Assembly: GCF_023558375.1 (NCBI RefSeq)
Contig: NZ_CP083761.1
Location: forward strand, 1,229,001 to 1,293,000
DNA: 64,000 nt
DNA from: Chroococcidiopsis sp. CCMEE 29
GTDB taxonomy: Bacteria; Cyanobacteriota; Cyanobacteriia; Cyanobacteriales; Chroococcidiopsidaceae
Direction of reading: 5' to 3'
Shown here: piece after piece, positions 4,368 through 64,000 of the stretch
How positions within the stretch are numbered: the stretch's first letter is position 1
How the letters are laid out: each line of letters starts with the position of its first letter
The notes under the pieces: model-generated
Told to the model about the DNA's origin: nothing
Databases searched by the model: none
The model's input: the letters and a program-made list of their open reading frames with translations, nothing else
Position numbers and translations under genes: made by a program

Positions 4368-4403
4368 ACAGCTTGCTGCTTCACTTCTCGATTCCGCCCA
4401 GGA

Positions 4404-4547
4404 TTAAGCTAAGTTCAAGCTGAAGGTCTGATCCGGGCATTCCGGTTCCAGACAACGGAAGCGTTGCTTACCGTTGGTTTATTTTCCATGCCTAACCACT
4501 TCACTACTTTGGCAATGGGGACAACGGAGTGCGATTAAAACACCCAT
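4404..4547 (-). pseudogene. Decayed IS1-type InsA zinc-ribbon fragment
   Basis: Minus-strand frame starting with ATG at 4547. It reads MGVLIALRCPHCQSSEVVRH then GK, an in-frame TAA at codon 23, then TNGKQRFRCLEPECPDQTFS and a final stop. The CPHC and C-x4-C pairs and the GKQRFRC block match the zinc-ribbon N-terminal protein of IS1-family elements. Translation stops inside the motif, no catalytic part follows, and the KAP gene begins 37 bp downstream, so it is a truncated dead relic. Too short to be caught by an ORF-length cutoff. Confidence 0.6.
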
Positions 4548-4609
4548 ATTAGACTAGCCTGCTCCTTAAGCTTTACTCCTAGCCTATCCACAAATCAACA
4601 ACATTACCA

Positions 4610-6343
4610 TCAATTGAAATGGAAGAAGATACCACCTTTGAGAAATCTTGTCTCGCTGCCGTAACTACTAATGGTTAGCGATCGCAAATTGCTGAAAAAC
4701 GGTTTTCCGGCAACTTCCAGCAGCTTTAGAATCGGCAGTTGGCGCTCTAGAATATTCTGAGTCTCTCTCCAGCCCAAATACACATAGCCCTCATTCGGTC
4801 GAGGGATGGCATTAATACTCGATTGAAACTCGGAACTGTCAATTAAGGAGCCGATGTTGGGAGCTTTGAGCGCTTCATCCATTGCCTCAACTGAGGTGGT
4901 GAAAATTTCATAGTTCCCTACTGCGGTATGCACGCCCTCAACTTTTGCCTTGAGCGTGATTGAGGCTTGATCTGAATCTGAGGAGCTAATAGGAGCGGTT
5001 GTTAACTGCGTCCAAGCAGAGATTTGTTGTTTTTCCAGAGGCAACCTAGTAATGCTAAGTCCCTTGGTAGCAGCGATCGCGTCCAGACGGGAAAGTCCCT
5101 GCTCAGCAGCGTCCGATTTCTCCGCCACAAAAATCCAATCGGCAGCGGTTTGATCGGCACGGGGTAATAGCCCTACGGCGTATTCTCCTTGTACCCAGCT
5201 AAAAATATCCTGTTCTAGATCTACACCCCAGCGCGTCTGAAGCTCTGCCAGTGGTTGCTTGACTAGTCGCGAGAGCGCGTCACTCCCTGAACCGGATATT
5301 TCTGATGCAACTTGTGTCCACAGTTGATTCAAATCGCTATCTTCTAGATGGCTCAAATCAGATCCGGAAATCGAAAAGCCTGTTGCAGCTGGAAGGTACT
5401 GTAACGCCTTAACAGGTTGAGACAAGTTCGGTGCAGAAGGAGCAATTTCTTGCTCAGGTGCTGCGATTAATGTTGTTTCAGCCAGCAATCCTTGGCGGTT
5501 CAATTCCAAGCCAATAATTTGGCTTTCATACGTTTGAGCGATTGGTTCATTTCCTAGCCATGTACCTAAATTGGGAAGATTTAGAAAAGCCAAACCAATC
5601 CGACGCGGAGGCAACAGAGTAAGGGCTTGCTGATATTGGTTGGAACTAGTCAAGCTCAGATCGGGAGCTTGAACATTATTGATGGCATCCCGTAGTACCT
5701 TGGGATGATTGGCAAATAGGACGAAACGATCGCCTACAACTGCAGCGGAAAAATAGTTTTGAGTTGAAGCAGCTGATGGCTGAGTGCTGAGTGCTGAAGA
5801 CCGATTATCATAGACCAGATTCACACCTTTATACTGTTCAAAAGCCAAATCTGTAACAGCGATCGCTCGCTTGGAGAACAATAACTGGAGGAACTCGCGG
5901 CTCTTGTCTGGATCTTTAGTCGTAAGCGCCATCAGATATCCCGGTTGCCGCCCGTTCTGAGCCTCACGGTCAATGTCTATGCTAGTGACAGCTAGGGTAA
6001 TTTCATCTCCTAACCAGGGTTGGACATCCCGCCGATAGTTCAGATCAGTGTTAGCCAACAAGCTAGTTTTCAGCTGGTTTAGTTCGCTGCGCGATCGCCG
6101 CCGTTCTCCAGGACAAGTCACTAATTGCCGCAACGACTCTAGGCGGTCTGGATTCACCAGCATTGATACCATAACCGGTGCCTGTTTCGACACGAATATG
6201 GCTGCTGCTGGGGTTGTCTGGCTCCCACCGCGAAGCAGAGTGAGTGGACTCTGGGAGATTAACCAGTAATAGCCACTGATCCCAATCAACAGCAGCACCA
6301 CTACAGCCGCTGCCAGAGGATAGAAGAATGAGCGTCGCTTCAT
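4610..6343 (-). CDS. DUF3352 domain-containing membrane-anchored protein
   Basis: Conserved cyanobacterial protein of 577 residues. It has a short basic N-terminus (MKRRSF) followed by one hydrophobic segment (residues 8-29), consistent with an uncleaved signal anchor and a large periplasmic or lumenal domain. The body matches the DUF3352 family pattern (TTPAAAIFVSKQAPVMVSML near residue 45, then alternating strands and helices). No catalytic motif is visible and function is unknown. It lies alone on the minus strand, divergent from the rhodanese gene. Confidence 0.75.
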   Translation of the reverse strand: MKRRSFFYPLAAAVVVLLLIGISGYYWLISQSPLTLLRGGSQTTPAAAIFVSKQAPVMVSMLVNPDRLESLRQLVTCPGERRRSRSELNQLKTSLLANTDLNYRRDVQPWLGDEITLAVTSIDIDREAQNGRQPGYLMALTTKDPDKSREFLQLLFSKRAIAVTDLAFEQYKGVNLVYDNRSSALSTQPSAASTQNYFSAAVVGDRFVLFANHPKVLRDAINNVQAPDLSLTSSNQYQQALTLLPPRRIGLAFLNLPNLGTWLGNEPIAQTYESQIIGLELNRQGLLAETTLIAAPEQEIAPSAPNLSQPVKALQYLPAATGFSISGSDLSHLEDSDLNQLWTQVASEISGSGSDALSRLVKQPLAELQTRWGVDLEQDIFSWVQGEYAVGLLPRADQTAADWIFVAEKSDAAEQGLSRLDAIAATKGLSITRLPLEKQQISAWTQLTTAPISSSDSDQASITLKAKVEGVHTAVGNYEIFTTSVEAMDEALKAPNIGSLIDSSEFQSSINAIPRPNEGYVYLGWRETQNILERQLPILKLLEVAGKPFFSNLRSLTISSYGSETRFLKGGIFFHFN

Positions 6344-6522
6344 AGTTGTTTACAAAGATCCCAGAAGACTATATTGCATTACCGCATTCCAAGTTAACAA
6401 CAAGCCACTGTTCAACTTCCTGGTTCAGGAGTTAGAGAAAAGACAGAGGAATGCTAAAACTAAGTCTAGTAACCTACAATATCAGGAAATTTTACAGCCT
6501 AGGGTCTAGTTCTTTTCCCTCG

Positions 6523-6542
6523 CCCCTCACCCCTCACCCCTC
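6523..6542. repeat. Heptamer tandem repeat (CCCCTCA)n
   Basis: Nearly three CCCCTCA units ending 5 bp before the ATG of the rhodanese gene. It occupies the position where a Shine-Dalgarno would be expected. Same repeat class as those at 47932-47970 and 52871-52984. Confidence 0.75.
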
Positions 6543-6547
6543 TTGAG

Positions 6548-6910
6548 ATGTCTACTCAATTTTTCGGTCAACCCATTGCCCAAATTAGTGTTGAGGAACT
6601 TGCTCTTTGTTTACAATCAGGTTCCAAAGAGAATTTACAGTTGGTAGATGTGCGCGAACCTGAAGAAGTGGCGATCGCTCGGATCGAAGGCTTTGGCATT
6701 TTACCTTTAAGTCAATTTGCTGAGTGGGCTGACTCTATCCCCACCCGCTTTGATCCGCATGCTGAGACAATCATCATGTGTCACCACGGCATCCGTTCCG
6801 CGCAGATGTGTCAGTGGTTAAGCCATCAGGGATTCACGAACGTTAAAAATCTGGCTGGGGGAATCGATGCCTACTCTACCCTGGTTGATCCAACAATTCC
6901 TAGATATTAG
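6548..6910 (+). CDS. Rhodanese-like domain protein
   Basis: Single rhodanese domain of 120 residues. LVDVREPEEV at 32-41 is the conserved CH2A-like motif and the active-site loop is CHHGIRS at 78-84, with Cys78 as the expected persulfide carrier. A six-residue loop after the cysteine fits a sulfurtransferase rather than a Cdc25-type phosphatase, which has seven. No signal peptide, so cytoplasmic. The start ATG has a heptamer repeat instead of a Shine-Dalgarno. The physiological sulfur acceptor cannot be told from context. Confidence 0.85.
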   Translation: MSTQFFGQPIAQISVEELALCLQSGSKENLQLVDVREPEEVAIARIEGFGILPLSQFAEWADSIPTRFDPHAETIIMCHHGIRSAQMCQWLSHQGFTNVKNLAGGIDAYSTLVDPTIPRY

Positions 6911-7266
6911 GAGCAGGGGGAGCAGGGGACGCAGGGGGAGCAGGGGGAGCAGAATGATTAGACTGCTCCTAGGGAAATCGAGTTAAATGTGCAACAGCTT
7001 AGCAGCTAAAAGCTTTTGGTAAAAATTGCTACTGGCGCTCAGTAAAAATTCAAGGTATAATCGGGAGTTAACCTCAGAGGTTGAATTTCTTTTTGGAGTA
7101 GCCCTAAGGAGCACCTGCGGGTTGATCGTTAAATTAAATACTACTGTCGCTCAGGCGAAAACAGTGCTTAATTTGTTAACTTAAGTATAAGTAAAATTAA
7201 TATTTTTCATAAACTACATTCACAGTTTTAAAACCAGATAAAACTTCTCATCGGTTTTAATCGGCT
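6911..7266. other. Intergenic region: GGGGAGCA repeats and hrcA leader
   Basis: Positions 6912-6952 are four degenerate copies of a GGGGAGCAG unit, a dispersed motif also present near 26151, 47868 and (as its complement) 40870 and 52160. The rest is AT-rich and precedes hrcA. A TATAAT-like hexamer near 7055 could be a -10 element, giving a leader of about 200 nt. I looked for the CIRCE operator (TTAGCACTC-N9-GAGTGCTAA) and did not find it. No ORF. Confidence 0.6.
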
Positions 7267-8340
7267 ATGCAAGTGCAGCTTACTAATCGACAACAGCACA
7301 TACTTTGGGCAACGGTGCGGCACTACATTGCTACCGCAGAGCCAGTAGGTTCAAAAGCTCTGGTTGAAGAGTACAACCTTCAAGTCAGCCCAGCCACGAT
7401 TCGCAACGCGATGGGCGTGTTAGAAAAAGCTGGTTTGCTCTATCAACCTCATACTTCTGCTGGACGAGTTCCCTCAGACTCTGGCTACCGAACTTATGTA
7501 GATCAACTGATTACACCTTCCGATATTCTGATGCGAGTGGAGCATGTACTCCAAGAGCGACTGAGATGGGACGATTGGAGCCTAGAAGCATTGCTGCAAG
7601 GAGCAGCGCAGATCCTGGCTACTGTCAGTGGCTGCATCACTATGATTACAATGCCTCAAACCAATACGGCTCGCTTACGACATTTGCAACTGATCCAGAT
7701 TGAGCCAGGACAGGTGATGACGATCATCGTCACAGATGCCTACGAGACGCAATCAGCGTTGATGGAGTTGCCTAAGTTCGCTGATGAAACGCCACCCGAT
7801 CCAGAAGTGGTTGAGCGGGAATTGCAAATTCTCTCAAACTTTTTGAACAGTCAGCTACGGGGGCGATCGCTTTCTGAATTAGCTGGACTGGACTGGACTC
7901 AATTAGATCGAGAATTCCAAAGTTATGGGGATTTCTTAAAAACCTTTTTGGCAGACTTATCCCGTCGCACTCAGTCGCCAGCTACCACGCAAATCATGGT
8001 TCGCGGCGTTGCAGAGGTGTTGCGCCAGCCGGAATTCTCCGAGTTGCAGCAAGTGCAAACAATTATCCACCTATTGGAAGAAGAGCAAGACCAGCTGTGG
8101 CCTTTAATCTTTGAAGAGCCAGAGTTAGAGGATAAAGCAGGGAGAAGAGTGACAATTCGGATTGGCTCAGAAAACTTATTAGAACCGATAAGAACCTGCA
8201 CATTAATTTCTTCCACCTATCGGCGGGGTTCAGTTCCTGTAGGGAGTGTCGGGGTACTAGGACCAACACGGATGGATTATGAAACTGCGATCGCTGTGGT
8301 GGAAGCATCTGCCGATTACCTATCAGCAGCCTTGAGTTAA
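7267..8340 (+). CDS. hrcA: Heat-inducible transcription repressor HrcA
   Basis: Winged-helix repressor of 357 residues. In bacteria with the CIRCE system it binds that operator upstream of chaperone genes, and in cyanobacteria it controls groESL. The N-terminus [28 protein letters not shown] and [20 protein letters not shown] (split here at natural motif edges) is the HrcA winged helix, followed by [14 protein letters not shown]. The C-terminal GAF-like domain ends with [18 protein letters not shown], a strong family signature. Length is normal for the family. It is not next to grpE or dnaK, and the following gene begins 12 bp downstream, suggesting co-transcription with the membrane proteins. 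Confidence 0.95.
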
Positions 8341-52984: not shown

Positions 52985-54344
52985 TGAGAATCTGAGCTGT
53001 TACGGCGAGGCCTTCTTCATAAAGCTCATCTCGACCCCAGCTTTGCAGTTGCTGACTCAGCAACAATTCTGCCTTTTGGTCAGCAAGTGCCGTTACTTGC
53101 TGAAATCGGCAAGCTTGGGCACCACCGCCTAACTCCATCCGCATACAACCACTTGTTTCAGAACATACAACCGTACAGCAATCTGCCTTGAGATTGGTCG
53201 AGGTCAGGCGCAGGGCAATTAGGTCGCCCGGAATCTCGCCCACATCCGCTGTTGGCACTCCTGCCAATTCCGCTTCTACTTGGCGCTGATCTTCTGCAAC
53301 AAAATGAATGCGCTTGATATCATAGTCTCCCTCTTCCTGTTCGATGTGTGTGGGACGCCAATGCAACCGACTTGCTAGCCAACCTAAGAACATGAGTGCT
53401 TGAGCAGGGTTGCCTTTTTCATAATCAATCGTCACTCGATCGACTTCCATCAGGGCGGCGCGACGCTCTGGCGGATCGAAAGCTTCGGCAGTCAACTCTT
53501 GCCAAGCCGACAATCGCCGCCAGTTGAGGTCAGCAACGGGCACACCAGACTCTAGCAGCTCTTGCGTACTCAATAAATCTATCTCAGCTTCAGGAAAGCG
53601 GCTGGAATCGACAATGATGGAATTGCATACGCTTACCAACCGCTTGAAGACACCATTATTCGGGTCTGGTGTTGCCTTCCACCAAAGAAACTTCGGTAGG
53701 TCACCTATTAATAGAGCTGCCACCATGCCACTAACCCGTTCTAAGGCAGCCACAGTTCCCGTCAGGGTAATGTACTCGCAGCAGACGAGCGTAGTTTGAC
53801 TTTGTTTGTGAATGGGACAATAAGCGGAGACTTGAGCCTTCACGCCCTCGTCTTCGCCAGCTACTGGACAGAGGGCAATGATCCGGCAGGGGTTGCGGCT
53901 AGCGATCGCATCTGCCACAGCAGGGCTTCTCGTATCCAAAGCATATGACAAAGAACTGGTGCCGTTGCCTCCATCACTGGCAGCACTACCAACGTATTTG
54001 GTAAGTTCTTCTCGCAACCTGGTTAGCGTTTCTGCAGTTGCCTTACCCGTCAAAGGTAGTCCGTAGGTTTTCTGTGCTTCCCGCAGCGCCACTTCGGTAC
54101 GAGGTCCCGGAATTCCATCAATCGGACCGCTGTAAAAACCCAAAGCAGTCAACAACTGCTGAGTTTCTTCCGGTTCGTAAACAATCAAACTAAACGTCGT
54201 TGCCCGTGTAGCAGCGGGCATCACTCCACTATCATCGTCAATCCCGTAACTTTGCCAAATCTTACTGAGTTCCCCCTCAATTTCACTGAGTGAAACATCC
54301 TTTGGCGCCTGAAGCGAAAAAATTGGAGCAGATTGTGTAGTCAT
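52965..54344 (-). CDS. opcA: Glucose-6-phosphate dehydrogenase activator OpcA
   Basis: 459 residues. In cyanobacteria OpcA binds and allosterically activates Zwf in a redox-dependent manner. Matching blocks include ALCPVAGEDEGVKAQVSAYC, LLIGDLPKFLWWKATPDPNN and RLHWRPTHIE. Residues 60-112 (LLTALGFYSGPIDGIPGPRT EVALREAQKTYGLPLTGKAT) look like an inserted peptidoglycan-binding type-1 domain, odd in a cytoplasmic protein. The last residues LGVRG and the stop come from a heptamer repeat. Follows zwf by 140 bp. Confidence 0.92.
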   Translation of the reverse strand: MTTQSAPIFSLQAPKDVSLSEIEGELSKIWQSYGIDDDSGVMPAATRATTFSLIVYEPEETQQLLTALGFYSGPIDGIPGPRTEVALREAQKTYGLPLTGKATAETLTRLREELTKYVGSAASDGGNGTSSLSYALDTRSPAVADAIASRNPCRIIALCPVAGEDEGVKAQVSAYCPIHKQSQTTLVCCEYITLTGTVAALERVSGMVAALLIGDLPKFLWWKATPDPNNGVFKRLVSVCNSIIVDSSRFPEAEIDLLSTQELLESGVPVADLNWRRLSAWQELTAEAFDPPERRAALMEVDRVTIDYEKGNPAQALMFLGWLASRLHWRPTHIEQEEGDYDIKRIHFVAEDQRQVEAELAGVPTADVGEIPGDLIALRLTSTNLKADCCTVVCSETSGCMRMELGGGAQACRFQQVTALADQKAELLLSQQLQSWGRDELYEEGLAVTAQILKLGVRG

Positions 54345-54452
54345 AAGAGTTTTATTTCAATAAAGTTAAGGCAGTTTTGAGTCATGAAATATATAGACAG
54401 TCTGTAAGTTAATTCTTTCTTTAATTCCTGACTTAAAACTGTTCTTTTTAAT

Positions 54453-54481
54453 TCAAAACTCAAAACTCAAAACTCAAAACT
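54453..54481. repeat. Heptamer tandem repeat (CAAAACT)n
   Basis: Four CAAAACT units immediately after the zwf stop codon, between zwf and opcA. Confidence 0.8.
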
Positions 54482-54484
54482 ATT

Positions 54485-56014
54485 TTAGAGGCGGCGCCAG
54501 CGGCGACCATCCTGGTTAATTAAGAATTCCGCTTCTGTAGGTTCCCAAGTGCCAGCTTCATACTGAGGAATCGACGCTGGATCTGTTGGCGCATCCCAAA
54601 CGCTAAGCGCTGGAGTCACTACCTGCCAAGCTGCTTCTACCTCATCCGCTCGTGTAAACAAAGTTTGGTCGCCCATCATACAGTCTAGTAACAGACGGTC
54701 ATAAGCATCAGAAGCCGCTATGCCAAAAGCCGAACCGTAACTAAAATCCATGTCAACTGAACGGGTGCGTAGGTTCAGACCGGGCATTTTGACCTCAAAT
54801 CGGAGGGAAATCCCTTCGTTCGGCTGAATTCGCATTGCTAGGATGTTAGCATTCACCTGTTGAGCAGCAGATTGAAATATCAAATAAGGAACTTCGCGGA
54901 AATGGATAGAAATCTCTGAAACTTTTTTCGGCAGTCGTTTGCCAGTACGTAGATAGAAGGGAACTCCTTGCCATCGCCAGCTATCAATTGAAAACTTCAT
55001 CGCTACATAAGTAGGCGTTGTAGAGTTGGGATTAACCCCTGGCTCCTCCCGATAGCCTGGCACGGGCTTACCCTTCATCCACCCTGCACTATACTGACCA
55101 CGCACTGCTGAACGTTCTAGATTCTGAACATCTGCTAAGCGAGTCGCTTGGAGTACCTTGACTTTTTCTGTACGGATACTATCCGCATCCAGCGCATTGG
55201 GTGGTTCCATTGCAGTTAAGCAGAACAGTTGCATTAGGTGGTTTTGCAACATATCCCGCAGGGCACCAGAGGTGTCATAGTACCCAGCCCGATCTTCTAC
55301 CCCCACTGTTTCTGCTACAGTAATTTGTACGTGGTCAACAAACTGGCGATTCCATAGTGGTTCAAATATGGCGTTGGCAAAGCGAAAGACAAGCAGATTC
55401 TGAACTGTTTCTTTACCTAGGTAGTGGTCAATCCGGTAGACTTGCTCTTCTTTGCAAACTTGCTGCACCACTCGGTTAAGCGTCCGAGCTGAACCCAAGT
55501 CCCGACCAAAAGGTTTTTCAATCACTAGGCGAGTCTTGAGTGGGTCTGCCAACATCTCTGCCGTCCCTAGCTGCTTGATTGCTTCGGCAAAGAATTTAGG
55601 GGAAACAGAGAGGTAAAAAACGCGGTTCCCCCGTGTACTTCGTTTTTCGTCTAGCTCACTCAAGAACGCTTTAAGTTTCTGGTAGCTTTCTGGATTGTCA
55701 ATGTCACCAGAGCAGTAGAAAAGTCCTTGGGCAAAGTCTTGCCAAAGTTCTTCTGAGCCAATACCGTCAGAAAATTGCTCAATGCCCTCACGCATTTGTT
55801 CTCGGAAGTAGTCATGGCTCCAGTCCCGTCGCGCCACGCCAACAATCGTGGTTTCCGGTGGAAGGCGGCGTTCCCGTCTTAATTTATAAAGCGCTGGTAC
55901 TAGTTTGCGCTGGGTAAGATCCCCTGAAGCACCAAAGATCGCCAAAATCTGGGGTTCGGGTACCCTTTGCTGTTGCAGCCCTACACGCAAGGGATTTTCT
56001 TGCAGCGTGACCAT
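54485..56014 (-). CDS. zwf: Glucose-6-phosphate 1-dehydrogenase
   Basis: 509 residues. First oxidative pentose phosphate enzyme: glucose 6-phosphate + NADP to 6-phosphogluconolactone + NADPH. NADP-binding GASGDLTQ at 28-35, EKPFGRD at 166-172 and active-site RIDHYLGKE at 194-202 are all present. Length normal. Several Cys occur (positions 101 and 187 among others), consistent with thioredoxin control in cyanobacteria, but the regulatory pair cannot be assigned here. Third gene of fbp-tal-zwf-opcA. Confidence 0.96.
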
Positions 56015-56112
56015 AGTTGAGTTGTTTGAAGGGTAAGTTTTAACAAAAAGGGACTAGGAGTAGGGAGTAAGGGGTAGCAGGTTTTTGCCTGACCCCTGAC
56101 CCCTGACCCCTC

Positions 56113-57276
56113 TTAAACAGGTGACAATTGTTTGACTTTCTCTTCTAAAGAGTTCATCAGCGATTGAAAGGGTTTAACAAATTTGTCAATTCCTTCGACG
56201 AGAAGTTCATCCATTACTTCGTCTAAATTAATATCGATGTCTGGATCTTTTAGACTTTCAATCAATTTATAGGCTTCCTCCACATCAGTCTCAATGCGGT
56301 TAGCAACATTGCAGTGGTCAGCACACGCCTCAATTGTACTGGGTGGCATAGTGTTAACTGTGTTAGGACCAACCAACTCGTCAACATACATCACATCGCT
56401 GTAGCTGGGATCTTTGGTGCTAGTGCTAGCCCACAATAGCCGCTGGATATTTGCACCCTTGGCTGACAGAGCTTTCCAGCGATCGCTCTGGATGATCTCT
56501 TTGAATTGCTGGTAAGCAATTTTAGCGTTGGCGATCGCTACTTTGCCTTTAACCGCCCTCAGTTTTGCCTCAGTGCTGATATCATCAACACCCTGCTTGA
56601 GTTTTTCATCAATCCGCTGATCGATATTGCTATCGATGCGGCTGAGGAAGAAGCTGGCTACAGAAGCAAGTTTGCTGATGTCCTTCCCTTCTGCTGCCCG
56701 TTTTTCCAAGCCCCGAATATAAGCCCACGCTGTATTTACGTAGCTCTCAACTGAGAACAGCAGCGTTACATTGACATTGATCCCTTCTGAAAGTACTTGC
56801 TCAAAGGCGGGCAAGCCCTTTGTAGTACCGGGAATCTTGATCATTACATTTTCCCGACCGATCTCTTGATAGTAGCGTCGGGCTTCGTTAATCGTCGCCT
56901 CAGTATCGTGAGCGATTGTCGGTGGTACTTCTATACTAACGTAACCATCCAGCCCATCCGTCGCGTCATAAATAGGGCGCAGGATATCACAGGCATTGCG
57001 GATATCTTCAAACACCAACGACTCGTAAATCTTATAAGTTGGTAATCCAGCCCGGATTCCAGCTTCAATATCCGCATCGTAAATTACGTTACCGGCGATC
57101 GCCTTTTCAAAAATTGCTGGGTTAGAAGTGATCCCACAAATGCCTCCATTCTCAATCAGCTGTTTAAGTTCACCTGACTGAATCATGTCACGGGTCAAAT
57201 TATCCATCCAGATACTCTGACCAAACTGTTGGATCTCTACTAAATGATTGTTTGGTTTGGTTGCTTGGTCTGTCAT
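56113..57276 (-). CDS. tal: Transaldolase
   Basis: 387 residues. Transfers dihydroxyacetone units between sugar phosphates in the pentose phosphate pathway. GGICGITSNPAIFEKAI at 44-60 is the family signature and Lys147 in VMIKIPGTTKG is the Schiff-base lysine. This is the longer Tal type found fused to G6P isomerase in some bacteria; here it stands alone. AGGAG lies 7 nt before the ATG. 87 bp after fbp and 98 bp before zwf, the last gap filled by CCTGACC repeats. Confidence 0.95.
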   Translation of the reverse strand: MTDQATKPNNHLVEIQQFGQSIWMDNLTRDMIQSGELKQLIENGGICGITSNPAIFEKAIAGNVIYDADIEAGIRAGLPTYKIYESLVFEDIRNACDILRPIYDATDGLDGYVSIEVPPTIAHDTEATINEARRYYQEIGRENVMIKIPGTTKGLPAFEQVLSEGINVNVTLLFSVESYVNTAWAYIRGLEKRAAEGKDISKLASVASFFLSRIDSNIDQRIDEKLKQGVDDISTEAKLRAVKGKVAIANAKIAYQQFKEIIQSDRWKALSAKGANIQRLLWASTSTKDPSYSDVMYVDELVGPNTVNTMPPSTIEACADHCNVANRIETDVEEAYKLIESLKDPDIDINLDEVMDELLVEGIDKFVKPFQSLMNSLEEKVKQLSPV

Positions 57277-57363
57277 CTTCTGACTCCTATCAATTGTTGT
57301 TCTAACAGTAATAACTAGTGCCGACTTATTCTGAAACTAAAGTGACATCTTTTAAAGTTATGT

Positions 57364-58443
57364 TCACTGCGGCACGCGCGCTTGAGCCCTTTTCATTTTT
57401 TCACTTTGTTCTGCTGCCTGTTTTTGAATGAATGACTCTACCAAGGCAACATCATCTTTGCTACCAATAATCAATGACGTGCGCTGATGTAGTTTTTCTG
57501 GCACCACGTCTAATATTTCCTCAGTTCCCGTACTTGCTCTTCCTCCTGCTTGTTCAATCAAAAAAGCTAAAGGCGCAGATTCATATAGCAAGCGAATTTT
57601 ACCTTCTGGTTTCTCAACTGTGCCAGGATACAGAAACACACCGCCTTGAATCAGAATGCGGTGAATGTCGCCAACCATTGCTCCACTATAGCGAGCTGTA
57701 TAACCCTCACTCCGATGAACGTAGCGGATATATTCCCGAAATGATTCATCCCATTGCCAGAAGTTACCTTCATTAACGCTATAAATTGAACCATGCTTAG
57801 GAGTTTGGATGTTTTCCTCTGAAAGGATAAATTCCCCTAAGCTGGGATCAAGCGTAAAAGAGTGAACTCCCTTGCCAATAGAATAGACCAGCATCGTGCT
57901 GGGACCGTAAAGAATGTATCCAGCGGCAATTTGTTTGCGCCCATTTCTCAGGAGGTCACTTGCTGAGTCGTCGGTATCATTTCCTTCTTGTTGCCTGATA
58001 GCAAAGATGGAACCCAAACTCATATTGATATCAGTATTGGAAGAACCGTCAATCGGGTCATATAACAGGGTATAGCGACCAACCGGACAGTTTTCTGGAA
58101 TGTAGTATGGTTTTTCCATTTCCTCGGAAGCCAAGCGACAAACTAGACCGCTTTGCTTGAACACCGAGATGAAAACATCATTGGCATAGACATCCAACTT
58201 TTTGACGGATTCTCCCTGCACGTTAATGTCTCCGGTAAAGCCGAGGACACCTTCCATTAAGCCAGCACGGCTGAGGCGACGAGCAATGATCTTGCCAGCG
58301 AGGGCAATGCGATTCATTAAGGCACTGAGATCCTGCGCTTCGGCTGAGAAGCTCTGAAGTTGTTGCAGAACGTGGCGGGACAGTGTTGTACAGTCACGCT
58401 CCAAAGCGTATTCTTGAGCTTCGGGTTGTAGCGCATCAGCCAT
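57364..58443 (-). CDS. fbp: Fructose-1,6-bisphosphatase class I
   Basis: 359 residues. Hydrolyses fructose 1,6-bisphosphate to fructose 6-phosphate in gluconeogenesis and sugar recycling. [12 protein letters not shown] and [20 protein letters not shown] carry the metal ligands (Glu and the DPIDGSS motif). [29 protein letters not shown] is the class I C-terminal signature. First gene of the carbon cluster. A strong AAGGGAGG ribosome site lies 9 nt before the ATG. Confidence 0.95.
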
Positions 58444-58452
58444 TATTTTCGT

Positions 58453-58460
58453 CCTCCCTT
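58453..58460 (-). promoter_or_regulatory. Shine-Dalgarno AAGGGAGG of fbp
   Basis: Minus-strand AAGGGAGG, 9 nt before the fbp ATG at 58443, one of the few strong sites in the window. Confidence 0.7.
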
Positions 58461-58603
58461 ATGGAGTGGAGCAGTTGTAACAGGACTGACAAAATTAGCA
58501 GCACCCGCTTCTGCTTTCTATCTTAGAAAGTGAATTTACTTATGAAATCCGACTTTAGACAAACTATAGAAGATAAACTGTTGAATGCGATGAAGTTTAT
58601 GTT

Positions 58604-58732
58604 GTGGCAGGAGACAAACAGCAGCCGGATGCGATCGTTGGCTGGATCTTAGTTGTCTGCTTGCTGCTGTTGGTCATATTCTGCCTGCAGAATTACACTC
58701 AAGCTGAAATATTGCTGGCTGTCGTGCTTTAA
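58604..58732 (+). CDS. Possible small membrane peptide, 42 residues
   Basis: GTG start at 58604 gives MAGDKQQPDAIVGWILVVCL and LLLVIFCLQNYTQAEILLAV, then VL and stop. One strongly hydrophobic helix (about 11-28). No ribosome-binding site is clear. It lies in the 460-bp gap 58444-58903 upstream of fbp, in the opposite direction. The rest of that gap holds nothing I can support. Tentative. Confidence 0.3.
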   Translation: MAGDKQQPDAIVGWILVVCLLLLVIFCLQNYTQAEILLAVVL

Positions 58733-58903
58733 TAATTTTGCAGCAAAAGACCGACTAGGTGTGACGCTTCTGTTTTTTCGCTACAACTGGTCGGCTAGGC
58801 TCTATAAAATTTTTTGAGTTTATTTAGTTGCTCCTAATTAGATTTTTAAAGACTTCTGCCTTCTAAACCTAGGGAACAATTTGCTTTAAAACCTATTCTT
58901 TGC

Positions 58904-59191
58904 TTAATAGTCGTCTCTCCTGCTACCAGCGCGCCGATTATTGTTTTCTTCTCGTGGCTTCGCTTTGTTTACTCTAAGTTGACGCCCCATCCACTCAGCA
59001 CCATCTAATTCCGTGATTGCCGCATCTTCTTGAGCATCTTCTGTCATGTCAACAAAGGCAAAACCTCGCATTCGTCCGGTTTCCCGATCCGTCGGTAAGA
59101 CAATTCGTTTAACGGTGCCGTATTCTGCAAATACTGCTCTTAAATCATCTTCCGTAGCGCGGTAGGAAAGATTTCCAACGTAAATAGTCAT
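58904..59191 (-). CDS. RNA-binding protein, RRM type (RbpA-like)
   Basis: 95 residues: a single RRM with RNP2 IYVGNL at 3-8 and RNP1 RGFAFVDM at 42-49, and a short basic Arg/Asn/Gly tail (EENNNRRAGSRRDDY). Cyanobacterial Rbp proteins bind RNA and many are cold-induced. Some with related tails help position mRNAs at thylakoids. A long leader (59192 upstream) with no Shine-Dalgarno next to the ATG would fit temperature-dependent translation, but that is inference. Confidence 0.88.
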   Translation of the reverse strand: MTIYVGNLSYRATEDDLRAVFAEYGTVKRIVLPTDRETGRMRGFAFVDMTEDAQEDAAITELDGAEWMGRQLRVNKAKPREENNNRRAGSRRDDY

Positions 59192-59557
59192 GATCGATCG
59201 CGGTAAATCTGAACGAGAAGCTAAAGTTCAGCTCTTGAGACAGATGTAAAACGATGCCAGAACAGCAAAGTCTTTCTGACTTACCAATGATGTAGTTTAA
59301 GGGTTGACAACCACTAGGGCGGCAGAGGCTCAAACTCAACCAGTGAGAGGACTGAACTTATGCATACCGTCTTATCATAGCTTATCGTTCCCTTAACAAA
59401 GGTTGTCTGTATTACACTGTTTGTGAAAATCTGCCTTTTCTTCCTAAAGATTGAAGGCGGGGTGTGGTGTTTATGCTAATTCCTAACAATCTGCGGCTAT
59501 GTCTGCCGGACAATTAGCAGCAAGATTGCGCTATGCCTGATCTCCTGTAACCAAATT
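59192..59557. other. Intergenic region upstream of the RRM gene
   Basis: 366 bp with no gene. It should contain the promoter and long 5' leader of the RRM gene (minus strand). TTGTCA on the minus strand near 59308 is a possible -35 box. No CDS or RNA gene recognised. Confidence 0.4.
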
Positions 59558-59773
59558 TTAATCAATTGAAATCGACTGAGGTCCACCGGTTTTACCGTTG
59601 TGAGCCTGGGTTGTTGATGTAGTGGTGGTAGAACTCAACTGCTGATCGAGCCAGCTTCTGACTGGATCGTCAGCAAGGTTGAGTCGAAGCAAACCAGAGG
59701 CGAAACCGCCCAAAAACGAGATTGGGTGTTGAGTGAATTGTTTAAAGATCGGTGACAGTTCATCTACGAACAT
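59558..59773 (-). CDS. Conserved small cyanobacterial protein
   Basis: 71 residues: MFVDELSPIFKQFTQHPISF, LGGFASGLLRLNLADDPVRS, then WLDQQ and a Ser/Thr tail ending GGPQSISID. The N-terminal 45 residues and the GGPQSI end match a small protein I recall as widespread in cyanobacteria, function unknown. AAGGA precedes the ATG. Its position just after nrdJ on the same strand (120 bp) could mean co-transcription. Confidence 0.7.
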   Translation of the reverse strand: MFVDELSPIFKQFTQHPISFLGGFASGLLRLNLADDPVRSWLDQQLSSTTTTSTTQAHNGKTGGPQSISID

Positions 59774-59893
59774 ACAAATTATCCTTCGCTAACGCTTAAT
59801 TTAGTTGCTGCTTTTGGCATTCTAACTGTTCCTTGGGAGAGTCTGGGTATCTAGTGAGTGCCAGACCTCTTGCCTTCCTGGTGGCACGCACAG

Positions 59894-62800
59894 CTATTGC
59901 TGTGGGAACAGACACTTATCAGAGTCACAGCCTGAAGGACCAGCTTCTGACAATTCACCTGAATCGTAGTGGCTTAGGGCTACACAAAAATCATCTGTTT
60001 TGCGTCGCGCTTTAACCGCTTGAATCAGCTGATCGTAAGTTGGTTTGTCTATTGGTTCAAACGGCAAACGCGGGAATGACTGGTGATCGTCGAAGCGTGC
60101 TAAAAGAGCAGCTGAGATGTAGCCATCGTCATCTTGGATCGCTTCATAGATGCAATGACCTAACGCTTCTACTTCGTTTTCGCGTAGCTCAATCGTGGCA
60201 GAGGTATTATGTGATACATAAAATTTCTGCACCTGCATGTAGAAGTCCATTTGCGCGATCGCACTAAACTTACTAATATCAATTTCATCCGCGCCAGGTA
60301 AATCAGCCCAAGGGACAGCAACGGGGATTTCTACTAGCCATTCTGTACACCGCTGATCGAAGGGATCGTTTAAGAGATTGCCATTTTCATCCTTATCCGA
60401 TTGGGAAGGAACGACATTGTAACCATAGTCAATGCAGGCTAGGGCTACCGGGTCATTTTTCCGGAATGTGATCCGCCGAATAAAACGTTGCGACTTGGGA
60501 GGATGCCAGCCAGGAGATGCACCAGTGAGTAGAGATTTTGTACCTGAAGGCTGGATAGTAGTGCAACGATTGGGGTGTTTGAGGTTGTGGCGATCGCAGT
60601 AGTCCCAAACAACCTGATTAACAATTTCTTTCCAACGGGACAAATATTCCTGTTCTTGCTGCTTAAACTTTATTCCTTCTAGGGTGGCAGGACGACCTGC
60701 TACCCACCAGCGCAGCCAATCAACCCCAAAGGCATTAACAAAAAAGTCAAATAATCCTGTAAAAGATACTCCGACGATTGGGTCAAATTCTCGCGATTTT
60801 TGGTAGCGTTCTTCTACAAATTTATGGTTGAGTAAAATCGCTACAGACAGCGCTCCAGCTGTGAAAGCCTCTTTTTGCTCTTGATTATTATATGGGTCAA
60901 TTTGATTCAGATGAATTTCTGCTAAGTTACAGTGAAAATTTGCGCCGATGATTTCACCACAATTATGAGCAGTAAATCCATTAGCATCGAATCTTGAGGG
61001 ACCAGGAACAGTACAATCATAAACTGCTTCTTCGCCATCAGGTTCAATACTAGAGACTGTGACAGCAAATCGTTCGCGATTGAAGTTGCGCTTATATCCT
61101 GACAACAAAGATTGTAAACGCCCAGCTTTGGAAGGGTCTTGGAAGCCAATTAATTCTTGAAAAACATTGATATTTTCGTTAGCTATAACTAACTCATGTT
61201 GAGTTTTGCAAAAGTATTCTGCTAGCTCTATCTTTGAGTCAGGCATCATTCGAATGCCCTCTATTCTGCGGTTTTTATAAATACAAGATGCGATACCTAA
61301 TCGTAGCAACATCCGCTGAACAGCTTCAAGTAACGGCAAATTACTTTGGGTAAGGCGGATACTAATCCCTTTAATCTGAGTACCCTGTACACTGCCATCT
61401 GCATCAAATAATCCTCGCAAAAAACCACGATAGAAGTCATAACTAGCTTGTTCAACTTCCGGCGTGATTACTTTATTTTTGATAGTTATACCAAACTTTC
61501 CAGCGAGTTTTGCTAACCCAGCAGAACTTACTTGAAAGTAGTTGTTCTGGGAGTGATAAATGCCAGTGAGCTTGCTACTGCCTGAAATCGATTGCTTCAC
61601 CAAAGCAAGGGCATATTCCTTCATTTCTACTTGATTATTACCCCAATATCGCAGGTGGGCTTGATAACTGTAGTTAGCAGGATTAGAACTGAAACAACCA
61701 TCTCCTACCAAGCTGCCTATTAACCAGCCTTCTGCTTCTGTCTCTTCGCCGTCCCAAGGTATCAATCCTCTGTGGTTATGAATTAATACTCTATCGCCAG
61801 GTTTAAGTTCAGAAACAGCAACCCATTCAGAATATTGCTTGTACTGAGTCTGCGCTGTAACCTTAAGCAGTTGATGATTTTCTGTCAGTCGGAGGCTATA
61901 ACCTTCTTTCGTTCTCAGCTTAACTACTGGTTTGGTTCCAGTGAAGAAAAATCCTTGAGGAGTCGTGCTGAACAGCTCACCATTGACGTATGTACTATGC
62001 TGTAAAGCAATTAAGTCTTTGACTTGTCTTGGACCTTCGCCTGTATGAATCCAAGTGTCTGCGGTAACACATGGATTCAAACCGTATCTTGATAGCCTAT
62101 GTTCTAACTCTTCATTTGATATTTCAGGATGGTGCTGTTGGAACCAAGAACGAGTATTTTCTTGTGATGTGGCGTAAGTTTTGAGAAACTCTTGTTTCAG
62201 TTCTGGAGTATTTAAAATATCTGCATTAGCGCGGGCGATCGCTTCTGGCGCATATTGAATTGCTCCTTCCCCAGAATAGTACTGTTGGCGAACAGCCTGA
62301 ACACAATCCTCCAAAGTTGGCTTTTGGTGGAAGACACGAGTATGGTTTGCCATTCGCAAGGCATCGCGTTCTGGATCAATGCGCCAGTTACCCTCTTTAT
62401 CCTGTTGCCAGAGGTTTGCTTTAGCATTGGCAAATAATTCATCATGACTATCGCCTTGCCTCATTCCAGCCGATCTTCTGACGTTACCTGCAACCACTAC
62501 GACAGCAGCTTCATCAATTAATAAACAACATTCAACAGAATTGAGCTGTCTACCCACAGCTTTGTTGAGGATAGAGGCGCAGCGCTCATATAATTCTGGC
62601 AACTTAACTGGGTTGGCAACCCCACCAAAGCCTTTTAGGAGTTCTCCGGCACCCCGAATATCCCTAAGGTCAATTTGAACTTTTACTTCACCTGCAAACC
62701 GCTGATCGCTGGAGAGTTCCAGCAGGGTTTGATATGACTTGATCCAACCCTGGCGACTATCCCCAACGTGAATTGTGACAGTGTTACCCTCGATTTGAAC

Positions 62801-63295
62801 CTCTGTGATGGCACGACGCAGATGAGCAGGTGTAGAGCCAATCTCCCCTTGCACAGTGACAACGAGATGATTGGATATTGAAGGCAGCTGGCTGATGTAG
62901 CGAGGTTCAAGGACTGCTCCTGTGCCACAACCCATCATTGCCAGATCCATCATTAAGCCAAAGGCACGCCAATCCACTACGTTGGTGGATGTACAATTGT
63001 ATCCTCCGGAAAAGTTCTCTGGCTTTTCAATCCACTCAGTTCCACCAACCCAGAGCCAACGCCCACTAGGGAGTGATTTCAACTGGTGCTGCATCCGTTC
63101 GATTAGTGTAGCTTCTTCAGGAGTGAGTTTGCCCAACTTAATTAAGCCTTGCAGCGTGCGATCGCACACCTGATCCCACGTCTCACGTCCCGCAGATGTC
63201 CGACGGCTATAAGTCCTAAAAAACACTGGATTAGCAGCAGGGGCAGTTTCAGGGAACTGGCTGGTTTGGGTTATGCGCTCTAGATCTCGCACCAT
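59894..63295 (-). CDS. nrdJ: Adenosylcobalamin-dependent ribonucleoside-triphosphate reductase with intein
   Basis: Class II reductase making deoxyribonucleotides with a B12-generated thiyl radical. The precursor has 1133 residues. Removing an in-frame intein (residues 409-778) leaves 763, the normal size for monomeric RTPR. GGYNCTSTNVVDW near 97-109 carries one redox Cys. NP|CGEIIGANFHC across the splice site carries the radical Cys and a second Cys. The C-terminal SGCDSDKCLF is the reductant-accepting pair. Frame is intact on both sides of the intein. Depends on cobalamin, for which cobB lies 8 kb away. Confidence 0.94.
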   Translation of the reverse strand: MVRDLERITQTSQFPETAPAANPVFFRTYSRRTSAGRETWDQVCDRTLQGLIKLGKLTPEEATLIERMQHQLKSLPSGRWLWVGGTEWIEKPENFSGGYNCTSTNVVDWRAFGLMMDLAMMGCGTGAVLEPRYISQLPSISNHLVVTVQGEIGSTPAHLRRAITEVQIEGNTVTIHVGDSRQGWIKSYQTLLELSSDQRFAGEVKVQIDLRDIRGAGELLKGFGGVANPVKLPELYERCASILNKAVGRQLNSVECCLLIDEAAVVVVAGNVRRSAGMRQGDSHDELFANAKANLWQQDKEGNWRIDPERDALRMANHTRVFHQKPTLEDCVQAVRQQYYSGEGAIQYAPEAIARANADILNTPELKQEFLKTYATSQENTRSWFQQHHPEISNEELEHRLSRYGLNPCVTADTWIHTGEGPRQVKDLIALQHSTYVNGELFSTTPQGFFFTGTKPVVKLRTKEGYSLRLTENHQLLKVTAQTQYKQYSEWVAVSELKPGDRVLIHNHRGLIPWDGEETEAEGWLIGSLVGDGCFSSNPANYSYQAHLRYWGNNQVEMKEYALALVKQSISGSSKLTGIYHSQNNYFQVSSAGLAKLAGKFGITIKNKVITPEVEQASYDFYRGFLRGLFDADGSVQGTQIKGISIRLTQSNLPLLEAVQRMLLRLGIASCIYKNRRIEGIRMMPDSKIELAEYFCKTQHELVIANENINVFQELIGFQDPSKAGRLQSLLSGYKRNFNRERFAVTVSSIEPDGEEAVYDCTVPGPSRFDANGFTAHNCGEIIGANFHCNLAEIHLNQIDPYNNQEQKEAFTAGALSVAILLNHKFVEERYQKSREFDPIVGVSFTGLFDFFVNAFGVDWLRWWVAGRPATLEGIKFKQQEQEYLSRWKEIVNQVVWDYCDRHNLKHPNRCTTIQPSGTKSLLTGASPGWHPPKSQRFIRRITFRKNDPVALACIDYGYNVVPSQSDKDENGNLLNDPFDQRCTEWLVEIPVAVPWADLPGADEIDISKFSAIAQMDFYMQVQKFYVSHNTSATIELRENEVEALGHCIYEAIQDDDGYISAALLARFDDHQSFPRLPFEPIDKPTYDQLIQAVKARRKTDDFCVALSHYDSGELSEAGPSGCDSDKCLFPQQ
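60962..62071 (-). other. Intein with LAGLIDADG homing endonuclease in NrdJ
   Basis: 370 residues, exactly in frame. Starts with Cys (CVTADTWIHTGEGPRQVKDL), has a block B TENHQLLKV, two LAGLIDADG-type helices (GWLIGSLVGDG and GFLRGLFDADG) and ends VYDCTVPGPS...FTAHN before Cys+1. The terminal Asn and the following Cys give a complete set of splicing residues. Both endonuclease motifs keep their acidic residues, so it may be active in splicing and homing. Confidence 0.92.
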
Positions 63296-63473
63296 AGATC
63301 AGGTCTTGTTGCTTTGGGATAGAAAGACTATACGCGATTTAGATATAGCGGTAAAGATTGAAAAATTTAAAACTTTGCGCTAGGTGTAGGGTTTTAACTG
63401 GCTGGGCAGAGGGCAGAAGGTTAAAATAAAGTTTTGAGGTCAAGATGCAACGACACTGGTGAGGGGTGAGTAA

Positions 63474-63989
63474 GTGAGCGATTTCAATTTAGAGCAAGTG
63501 GAGCAACTCAAGCAAATTGGGGCACATCTAAGACAATTTAGACAAAAGCAGTCTATATCTATAAAGGAAATAGCTACTAAAACGCTGATTCGAATGACCT
63601 TGTTGACAGCTCTGGAAGAAGGGAAAATAGACCAGTTGCCAGAGCCAGTTATTATTCGAGGATTTATCCAGCGCTATGGAGATACTCTTGGTCTGGATGG
63701 TGCGGCTTTAGCCAAAACTTTTCCAACTAATATTGTGTCTGTAAAATCTAGTATCTCTGAGCGAGAATTACCTACACTACCAAGCAGTGCGATTTACCTT
63801 TATATTCTCTACATCCTAGTATTAACGACTGCTACCTGTGGACTATTTTTTCTCAACCGCTCACCAACAGCTCAAGCCTTTTTATTAAAGCAAATTTCAT
63901 TAGTAGCGCTATCGGAGAAAACAGTAGCAATGTCTGTACCTTATAGTAGCTCACTCTCCAACTGTAAAGGAGCTACAGGGGTTAATTAG
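63474..63989 (+). CDS. RodZ-like helix-turn-helix membrane protein
   Basis: 171 residues from a GTG start at 63474, with GAGGGGTGAG upstream. The N-terminal Xre-type helix-turn-helix is LKQIGAHLRQFRQKQSISIK EIATKTLIRMTLLTALEEGK, then VIIRGFIQRYGDTLGLDG, the RodZ signature, and one membrane helix at about 106-126. The periplasmic part is short (about 45 residues). RodZ links MreB to the wall machinery; here that role is inferred from domain order. Confidence 0.8.
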   Translation: MSDFNLEQVEQLKQIGAHLRQFRQKQSISIKEIATKTLIRMTLLTALEEGKIDQLPEPVIIRGFIQRYGDTLGLDGAALAKTFPTNIVSVKSSISERELPTLPSSAIYLYILYILVLTTATCGLFFLNRSPTAQAFLLKQISLVALSEKTVAMSVPYSSSLSNCKGATGVN

Positions 63990-64000
63990 AGCGATAAGCA

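What the first reader, a model, noticed from the sequence alone, without database searches (positions are those of the whole stretch)
60962..62071. Intein splits NrdJ directly before its catalytic radical cysteine
The splice site is NP|CGEI. That Cys is, by comparison with known class I and II reductases, the thiyl-radical cysteine, so it serves both as the +1 splicing nucleophile and as the catalytic residue. No reductase activity is possible without splicing. Splicing that responds to redox or metal could then act as a switch on DNA precursor supply. All splicing residues and both LAGLIDADG acidic positions are intact.
Basis: partly seen in the sequence, partly recalled or inferred. Interest (0 to 1): 0.6.

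Follow-up and report, generated by a model that had tools for sequence, protein, structure and literature searches.

The report
Intein before reductase's catalytic cysteine
A self-removing protein insert sits exactly in front of the one cysteine thought to drive a cyanobacterium's only detected enzyme for making DNA building blocks; it looks like a spreading genetic parasite at a favourite landing spot, not a demonstrated switch.

Summary
ORF 59894-63295(-) is a monomeric class II (B12-type) ribonucleotide reductase, NrdJ, interrupted by a 370-aa class 1 LAGLIDADG intein at 60962-62071. The junction is LNP|C...HN|CGEI, and the +1 Cys aligns with Cys408 of the Lactobacillus enzyme. No other reductase was found in the genome, so splicing is very probably essential (inferred). 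The proposed redox/metal switch has no support. The intein is patchy within its own family (8 of 18 nrdJ genes), shows horizontal transfer (intein 92%, host 68% identity), and its endonuclease decays in 7 of 42 copies while the splicing residues stay. The same position is used in phage class I reductases such as SPbeta's. The surroundings are a hotspot: in 34 of 63 sampled cyanobacterial NrdJ genomes an intein or intron-like break lies within 11 codons containing two active-site cysteines. Loose ends: a native -1 proline, reported to impair splicing elsewhere, and an invariant block-F cysteine. New member of a known kind.

The parts
59894..63295 (-). nrdJ ORF, monomeric class II (adenosylcobalamin-type) ribonucleotide reductase with intein, 1133 aa
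   Evidence: TIGR02505 772.6 bits, cut-off 340; PF21995 insertion domain; only TIGR02505 gene found in genome
62072..63295 (-). N-extein, NrdJ residues 1-408, ends ...GLNP (proline at -1)
   Evidence: BLAST alignment to homologues ends at the junction
60962..62071 (-). intein, 370 aa, class 1 with LAGLIDADG endonuclease
62069..62071 (-). C1, first splicing nucleophile
   Evidence: 42/42 in the family (the extraction pattern required it)
61874..61885 (-). block B TENH (TxxH)
   Evidence: T63 and H66 42/42
61697..61723 (-). LAGLIDADG motif 1, LIGSLVGDG, acidic D124
   Evidence: D in 37/42
61394..61420 (-). LAGLIDADG motif 2, LRGLFDADG, acidic D225
   Evidence: D in 37/42
61007..61024 (-). block F VYDCTV with family-specific invariant Cys353 next to the block-F Asp
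   Evidence: C353 42/42 in the major family, Leu in the 6 members of the second family at the same site
60962..60967 (-). block G His-Asn, C-terminal splicing residues
   Evidence: 42/42 (the extraction pattern required them)
60959..60961 (-). +1 Cys = NrdJ Cys409, aligned with 1L1L Cys408 (radical cysteine; role recalled)
60929..60931 (-). NrdJ Cys419, second active-site cysteine (role recalled); +1 residue of a different intein (site C) in other cyanobacteria
   Evidence: site C inteins in at least 39 records
59894..60961 (-). C-extein, NrdJ residues 409-763

Best explanation
A full-length, mobile class 1 intein occupies one of the most conserved spots of the cell's only detected ribonucleotide reductase. 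The steps are: (1) the 1133-aa precursor is translated; (2) the intein excises itself through C1, the block B His, the terminal His-Asn and the +1 Cys (residues shown, reaction inferred); (3) the +1 Cys, having served as splicing nucleophile, becomes the catalytic thiyl-radical cysteine of mature 763-aa NrdJ (alignment shown, chemistry inferred); (4) the LAGLIDADG domain cuts intein-free nrdJ alleles at the conserved NPCGEI codons and the intein is copied in by repair (homing: inferred from intact motifs, transfer and presence/absence, not shown). The site is used because its coding sequence is highly conserved and imprecise loss would destroy an essential gene, not because splicing there is a sensor. 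Splicing is most likely constitutive.
For: Exact junction and all canonical residues. +1 Cys aligned with 1L1L C408; the precursor model's best structural match is 1L1L, Z 31.2, rmsd 3.5 over 627 residues (model mean pLDDT 72.9, both junctions under 50). Only reductase found. Patchy: in the own family 8 of 18 nrdJ genes carry it, with presence and absence inside four genera. Transfer: intein/host identity 92/68% (L036-L054), 83/66% (L006-L009), 96/80% (L005-L046); intein dS 0.02 (splicing part) and 0.04 (endonuclease part) against host dS 0.53 for L027-L033. Endonuclease dN/dS 0.06-0.10 in the six pairs among four close relatives (L007, L037, L095, L114), like the host gene's 0.06-0.10. Endonuclease acids lost in 7 of 42 while T63, H66 and D352 are 42/42, as expected of the homing cycle.
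Against: Neither splicing nor DNA cleavage was tested. The native -1 proline is reported as incompatible with efficient splicing in other inteins (PMC13123727, passages), so slow or context-dependent splicing cannot be excluded. An extra cysteine, C353, is invariant in the splicing domain (42/42), which a pure-parasite reading does not explain. Intein-host identity correlation is 0.51 and only 40 of 861 pairs have the intein more alike than the host, so much of the spread may be vertical. One further carrier, L040, has its reading frame broken inside the intein and elsewhere in the gene and was left out of the counts; it is a fragmentary metagenome assembly.
Confidence: 0.88

Rival explanations
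1. Redox or metal switch: oxidation or zinc ties up C1, the +1 Cys or block-F Cys353, holding NrdJ as inactive precursor until conditions improve.
For: Cysteine nucleophiles at both junctions; C353 is 42/42, including the shortened inteins; precedent of oxidative inhibition in the M. smegmatis DnaB intein through a catalytic and a non-catalytic Cys (PMC6195587, passages).
Against: No Cys in the N-extein end GLNP; C288, the other frequent Cys, disappears where the endonuclease decays (5 of its 6 losses), so it belongs to that domain; the second intein family at the same site has Leu in place of C353 (6 of 6); 10 of 18 family genomes with nrdJ do without this intein.
Confidence: 0.06
2. Folding or cofactor timing: the intein keeps the barrel open during early folding (for example for cobalamin or Cys loading) and so improves the mature enzyme, as proposed for the Aquifex NrdB intein.
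For: The Aquifex NrdB intein lies between two iron ligands and the intein-bearing construct gave higher iron content and twice the activity (PMC8772380, passages); here the insert splits the finger loop in the barrel centre.
Against: 3 of 18 family genomes with nrdJ have an uninterrupted gene; no comparison of spliced and directly expressed NrdJ was found.
Confidence: 0.05
3. A decayed or splicing-dead insertion, with another reductase doing the work.
For: None found for the window.
Against: No other reductase found in the genome, open frame without stops, all splicing residues intact.
Confidence: 0.01

Closest known systems
Bacillus phage SPbeta BnrdE intein (class Ib-type reductase; annotated putative intein, NC_001884.1)
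   Same: Intein directly before the homologous Cys: SNL|CVTGET...TGN|CSEV; alignable over the whole intein, 25.7% identity, E 1e-22
   Different: Class I host protein, -1 Leu not Pro, penultimate Gly not His
Thermus phage G20c NrdJm intein (noted as a likely intein in PMC6459318, passages)
   Same: Same host subclass and same junction GLNP|C...GN|CAEI, -1 Pro
   Different: 24% identity, phage-borne, penultimate Gly
Cyanobacterial nrdJ inteins and introns (Thermosynechococcus nrdJ intein, PMC9403480, passages; Anabaena 7120 mentioned in PMC4465626, passages; Nostoc punctiforme group I intron described in PMC12702839, passages)
   Same: Same gene and phylum; same kinds of element
   Different: The site relative to the radical Cys is not given in the passages seen; two original papers tried were not held
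NrdJ-1 split intein (NPC|SEI)
   Same: Extein motif NPC|SEI matches the same catalytic motif of NrdJ (that it comes from a NrdJ gene is recalled)
   Different: One residue further on: the Cys is at -1 and Ser is +1; used as a split intein (PMC13123727, passages)
Mycobacterial DnaB intein DnaBi1 as oxidative stress sensor
   Same: Intein in an essential DNA-replication protein; cysteine chemistry
   Different: Class 3 intein with catalytic Cys118 and partner Cys48 (PMC6195587, passages); nothing equivalent shown here

Membership tests
Class 1 intein | Cys/Ser/Thr at position 1, TxxH in block B, His-Asn at the end, Cys/Ser/Thr at +1 | tested here: met
   C1, T63/H66, H369/N370, +1 Cys; Pfam and NCBIfam intein models over cut-off
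Class 1 intein | Autocatalytic splicing of the precursor | not testable with these tools
   needs expression
Class 3 intein | No nucleophile at position 1; block F position 4 Cys | tested here: not met
   C1 present; block F reads VYDCTV with Asp at position 4 and Cys at 5 (class definition and position naming recalled)
LAGLIDADG homing endonuclease | Two LAGLIDADG motifs each with an acidic residue | tested here: met
   PF14528 83 bits; D124 and D225
LAGLIDADG homing endonuclease | Cuts the intein-free allele | not testable with these tools
   needs a cleavage assay
Monomeric class II ribonucleotide reductase (NrdJm/RTPR) | RTPR model, insertion domain, NPCGE radical-Cys motif | tested here: met
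   TIGR02505 772.6 bits; PF21995 28.9 bits, cut-off 27; +1 Cys on 1L1L C408; fold match 1L1L Z 31.2
Monomeric class II ribonucleotide reductase (NrdJm/RTPR) | Adenosylcobalamin-dependent reduction of ribonucleotides | not testable with these tools
   needs an enzyme assay
Redox-responsive (conditional) intein | A partner cysteine able to trap a splicing nucleophile | tested here: inconclusive
   no Cys at the N-extein end; C353 invariant but no coordinates were available to measure distances
Redox-responsive (conditional) intein | Splicing rate changes with redox or metal | not testable with these tools
   needs bench kinetics

The most novel reading that the evidence does not exclude
The -1 proline makes the usual first N-to-S acyl shift unfavourable, and the family has answered with an altered catalytic centre in which invariant block-F Cys353, beside the block-F Asp, helps activate or relay the N-junction and makes splicing conditional on local folding of the NrdJ finger loop or on thiol state. 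The essential reductase would then be released only when its active-site loop is correctly placed and reduced.
Probability: 0.07. Interest if true: 0.7.

Novelty: new member of a known kind. Interest (0 to 1): 0.3.

Why it matters
It shows how far mobile elements converge on the least dispensable codons of a cell. In cyanobacterial NrdJ, inteins of three families and intron-like breaks (one a recognised group I intron) share an 11-codon stretch containing two active-site cysteines. Each of those cysteines is the +1 nucleophile of a separate intein, and at least 15 of the 121 records scanned carry both inteins with only ten extein residues between them (some records are one genome under two ids). 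A natural series of -1 proline inteins, some shortened by loss of the endonuclease, would also be useful for testing what really limits the first step of splicing.

Tried and rejected
Redox/metal switch: looked for a cysteine at the N-extein end (none) and for conserved non-catalytic cysteines. C288 (36/42) was rejected because 5 of its 6 losses coincide with endonuclease decay. C353 (42/42) could not be rejected, but 56 of 370 intein positions are invariant in that set, so invariance alone says little.

Second reductase elsewhere: four families searched in the own genome, none but this gene (the same searches rang in 11, 7, 6 and 8 of 14 control genomes). PF02867 did not match this NrdJ itself, so it does not cover the monomeric form; TIGR02505 does.

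Viral source: the intein alone had no relative in viral contigs (close relatives only, 2 pattern matches, none confirmed). Phage records gave 86 matches, all under 60% identity; the rows listed lie in reductases, helicases, terminases, polymerases and others (40 of 86 listed at most). Plasmids gave 5. Junctions were read in 9 of these hits: 7 have the reductase junction before the homologous Cys (one on the N-side only), 2 (a Streptomyces plasmid, a Bacteroides phage) do not. The 12 cyanophage-type records listed of 37 carry NrdJ up to 67.8% identical, apparently without this intein, judged from match lengths only.

Structure model: 25-row alignment, mean pLDDT 72.9, junctions under 50; used only to confirm the reductase fold, not to measure cysteine distances. 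No intein chain is among the 50 rows listed.

Rfam over 54000-64000: no match, so no sign of a cobalamin riboswitch. Tandem repeats in 58000-64000: none.

Script faults: the printed endonuclease motif columns were misplaced; counts used come. One search gave a first, smaller set (32 major-family members), replaced (42 distinct). The extraction pattern demanded LNP|C and HN|CGE, so conservation of -1 Pro, C1, His-Asn and +1 Cys in that set is partly by construction; the check is that BLAST found 37 named carriers and the pattern kept 36, losing only frame-broken L040. The site C pattern missed at least three sites that mapping shows (L098, L111, and L122, whose stretch was cut short), so site C counts from patterns are lower bounds. 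In one search nine of 19 genomes matched; G207 (28% over residues 1-131) was not counted as site B.

Literature: searches. Two held papers contain intein, thiyl, ribonucleotide reductase and splic-; the passages seen in them do not state that an intein +1 Cys is the radical Cys. I claim no priority: two original papers tried were not held, and the SPbeta, Trichodesmium and Pyrococcus papers were not looked up.

Full report
What is there. The minus-strand ORF 59894-63295 encodes 1133 aa. It scores 772.6 bits to TIGR02505, adenosylcobalamin-dependent ribonucleoside-triphosphate reductase, cut-off 340, and matches the class II insertion domain PF21995 just over its cut-off (28.9 against 27 bits). 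Residues 409-778 are a 370-aa intein, window 60962-62071, recognised by Pfam and NCBIfam intein models and by LAGLIDADG_3 at 83 bits. The junctions read RYGLNP|CVTADTWIHT and FDANGFTAHN|CGEIIGANFHC. In the phmmer alignment to 1L1L (L. leichmannii reductase) the +1 Cys falls on residue 408. That Cys408 is the thiyl-radical residue there, and that Cys119 and Cys419 are the redox pair, are recalled; a review in the library states that in class I, II and III structures the radical cysteine lies on a finger loop in the centre of the barrel (PMC4390871, passages).

Is splicing essential? The genome (6.39 Mb, 2 contigs, 99.99% complete) has no match to class I large (PF02867) or small (PF00268) subunits or class III (PF13597), and its two TIGR02505 matches are the two halves of this gene. 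So mature NrdJ is the only detected route to deoxynucleotides. The precursor, with 370 residues inserted in the finger loop, is very unlikely to be active (inference).

Relatives. A scan of named genomes gave 80 cyanobacterial loci, the best 80 of 567 by similarity to the intein-bearing query and so biased to carriers. For a fairer view I searched 194 genomes drawn evenly from the phylum at 90% completeness or more: 63 have monomeric NrdJ (62 over cut-off plus one fragmented gene, G079). Of these, 22 give one full-length match without interruption and 41 are interrupted (counted). I fetched and mapped the 40 other than my own (for G079 only its C-terminal part, completed). Insertion points in mature numbering: site A 274|275 in 18, plus G079's N-terminal gene; site B 408|409 (this finding) in 16; an intron-like non-coding break at 410|411 in 12; site C 418|419, just before the second active-site Cys, in 14. 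Six genomes have B and C, two have the break and C. At least one of B, break or C is present in 34 of 63 by mapping; 31 of these are also recovered by reading the junction motifs, and G079 was read directly. The remaining 7 have site A only.

The intron-like break. It occurs in 34 of 121 records. Thirteen of these, plus L017 without the break, were scanned with Rfam: one, L064, has a group I intron (75.1 bits, 5226-5486) filling the gap; the other twelve gave no intron at the gathering score. So 'group I' is shown for one and only likely for others; a group I intron in Nostoc punctiforme nrd is reported by a review (PMC12702839, passages).

Clustering. Five insertion points (the four above plus 548|549 seen in L058, L121 and L122) with three inside ten codons arise in 0.5% of random draws, or 0.8% if insertions only land before invariant residues (the window of ten codons was chosen after seeing the data). 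That inteins favour conserved and catalytic sites is known (PMC2814812, passages).

Two families at one site. Over 121 records, 52 carry an intact site B intein; 48 are distinct, 42 of the window's family and 6 of a second family about 26% identical. L040 is a further carrier with a broken frame and was not counted. Site C inteins were read in 39 records and both B and C in 15; both are lower bounds, and some records are one genome under two ids.

Same position outside cyanobacteria. The window intein aligns end to end with inteins in phage reductases. In SPbeta BnrdE the junction is SNL|CVTG...TGN|CSEV, and a Miltoncostaea plasmid reductase has the same form. Staphylococcus, Acinetobacter and Proteus phage reductases show NL|C...N|C, Thermus phage G20c NrdJ shows GLNP|C...GN|CAEI, and a Moorella phage shows TNP|C on its N-side. 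That is 7 of the 9 hits whose junctions I read; the other two are not reductase junctions. An NCBIfam B12-dependent reductase model that contains inteins (NF006207) also aligns across the C-junction, query 452-806, far below its cut-off. Hence an intein right before the radical cysteine is an existing arrangement across reductase classes, at least in the sequence records.

Mobile or domesticated? In the window's own family (19 genomes, 18 with nrdJ), the site B intein is in 8, the gene is uninterrupted in 3, has only site A in 1, only site C in 5, and A plus C in 1; four genera contain both carriers and non-carriers (sites read from match boundaries). Across 42 distinct inteins and 861 pairs, mean host identity is 73% and mean intein identity 63%, correlation 0.51, so most divergence is shared; 40 pairs have the intein more alike than the host, with extremes of 92/68, 83/66 and 96/80%. 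For L027-L033 synonymous divergence is 0.02-0.04 in the intein and 0.53 in the host. The endonuclease part has dN/dS 0.06-0.10 in six pairs among four close relatives, equal to the host gene; the three very recent pairs are too close to judge (0.22-0.53 on tiny counts) and one distant pair gives 0.26 against 0.22 for its host. No pair with the window qualified, its dS being saturated. Endonuclease acids are lost in 7 of 42, with lengths down to 273 aa, whereas T63, H66 and D352 are 42/42, as are C1, H369 and N370, which the extraction required. This is the pattern of an element that homes, sometimes loses its endonuclease, and must always splice.

The switch idea. Known redox-responsive inteins rely on a partner cysteine. 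Here the N-extein ends GLNP. Among extra intein cysteines, C288 is kept in 36 of 42 and lost mainly with the endonuclease; C353, in block F directly after the block-F Asp, is 42/42 but Leu in the second family at the same site. Site C inteins also have a block-F Cys, in all 39 tallied. These are leads, not evidence of regulation.

The -1 proline. P408 is invariant in the 25-row NrdJ alignment, and all carriers read here have it. For the NrdJ-1 intein, Asp or Pro at -1 compromised splicing, and Pro is described there as disrupting the first acyl shift (PMC13123727, passages). Natural -1 Pro inteins at this site are therefore a small chemical puzzle; whether any has been tested I could not establish.

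Verdict. Observation confirmed; catalytic coincidence and sole-reductase status supported; switch unsupported. A new member of a known kind, with an unusually crowded insertion hotspot around it.

Noticed in passing
L133 and L134 (genome G079, C1:2606000-2611500 and 2690500-2697500): nrdJ is split into two separate genes about 84 kb apart, broken just upstream of the radical-Cys motif; the N-gene carries a site A intein and the C-gene carries site C and site 548 inteins, with no obvious split intein joining them. Resembles a two-polypeptide NrdJ.
   Followed up: partly
L022, L027, L031-L033, L046-L049, L094, L100, L106, L109, L114, L115: Two inteins in one nrdJ separated by only ten extein residues (CGEIIGANFH or close variants), each using an active-site cysteine as +1 residue.
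   Followed up: yes
G195 and G196 (own family): Open frames of 1864 and 1846 codons whose match boundaries fit three inteins (sites A, B and C) in one nrdJ.
   Followed up: no
34 records, e.g. L055-L059, L061, L062, L064-L070, at codon 410|411 of nrdJ: Non-coding breaks two codons after the radical Cys; one (L064) is a recognised group I intron, the others are likely diverged relatives or larger insertions.
   Followed up: partly
L040 (about 3650-7620): A metagenome-assembled nrdJ with a site B intein whose frame is broken inside the intein and at other points of the gene; decay or assembly error.
   Followed up: no
window 54485-58443, minus strand: Three adjacent ORFs that look like glucose-6-phosphate dehydrogenase, transaldolase and fructose-1,6-bisphosphatase, a familiar cyanobacterial cluster (names recalled from the translations).
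   Followed up: no
window about 58906-59191, minus strand: Short ORF that looks like a cyanobacterial RNA-recognition-motif RNA-binding protein (by eye).
   Followed up: no
L058 1967-2750 and L068 7603-8870: Arrays of NsiR1 (nitrogen stress-induced RNA) copies near nrdJ in two Dolichospermum genomes.
   Followed up: no
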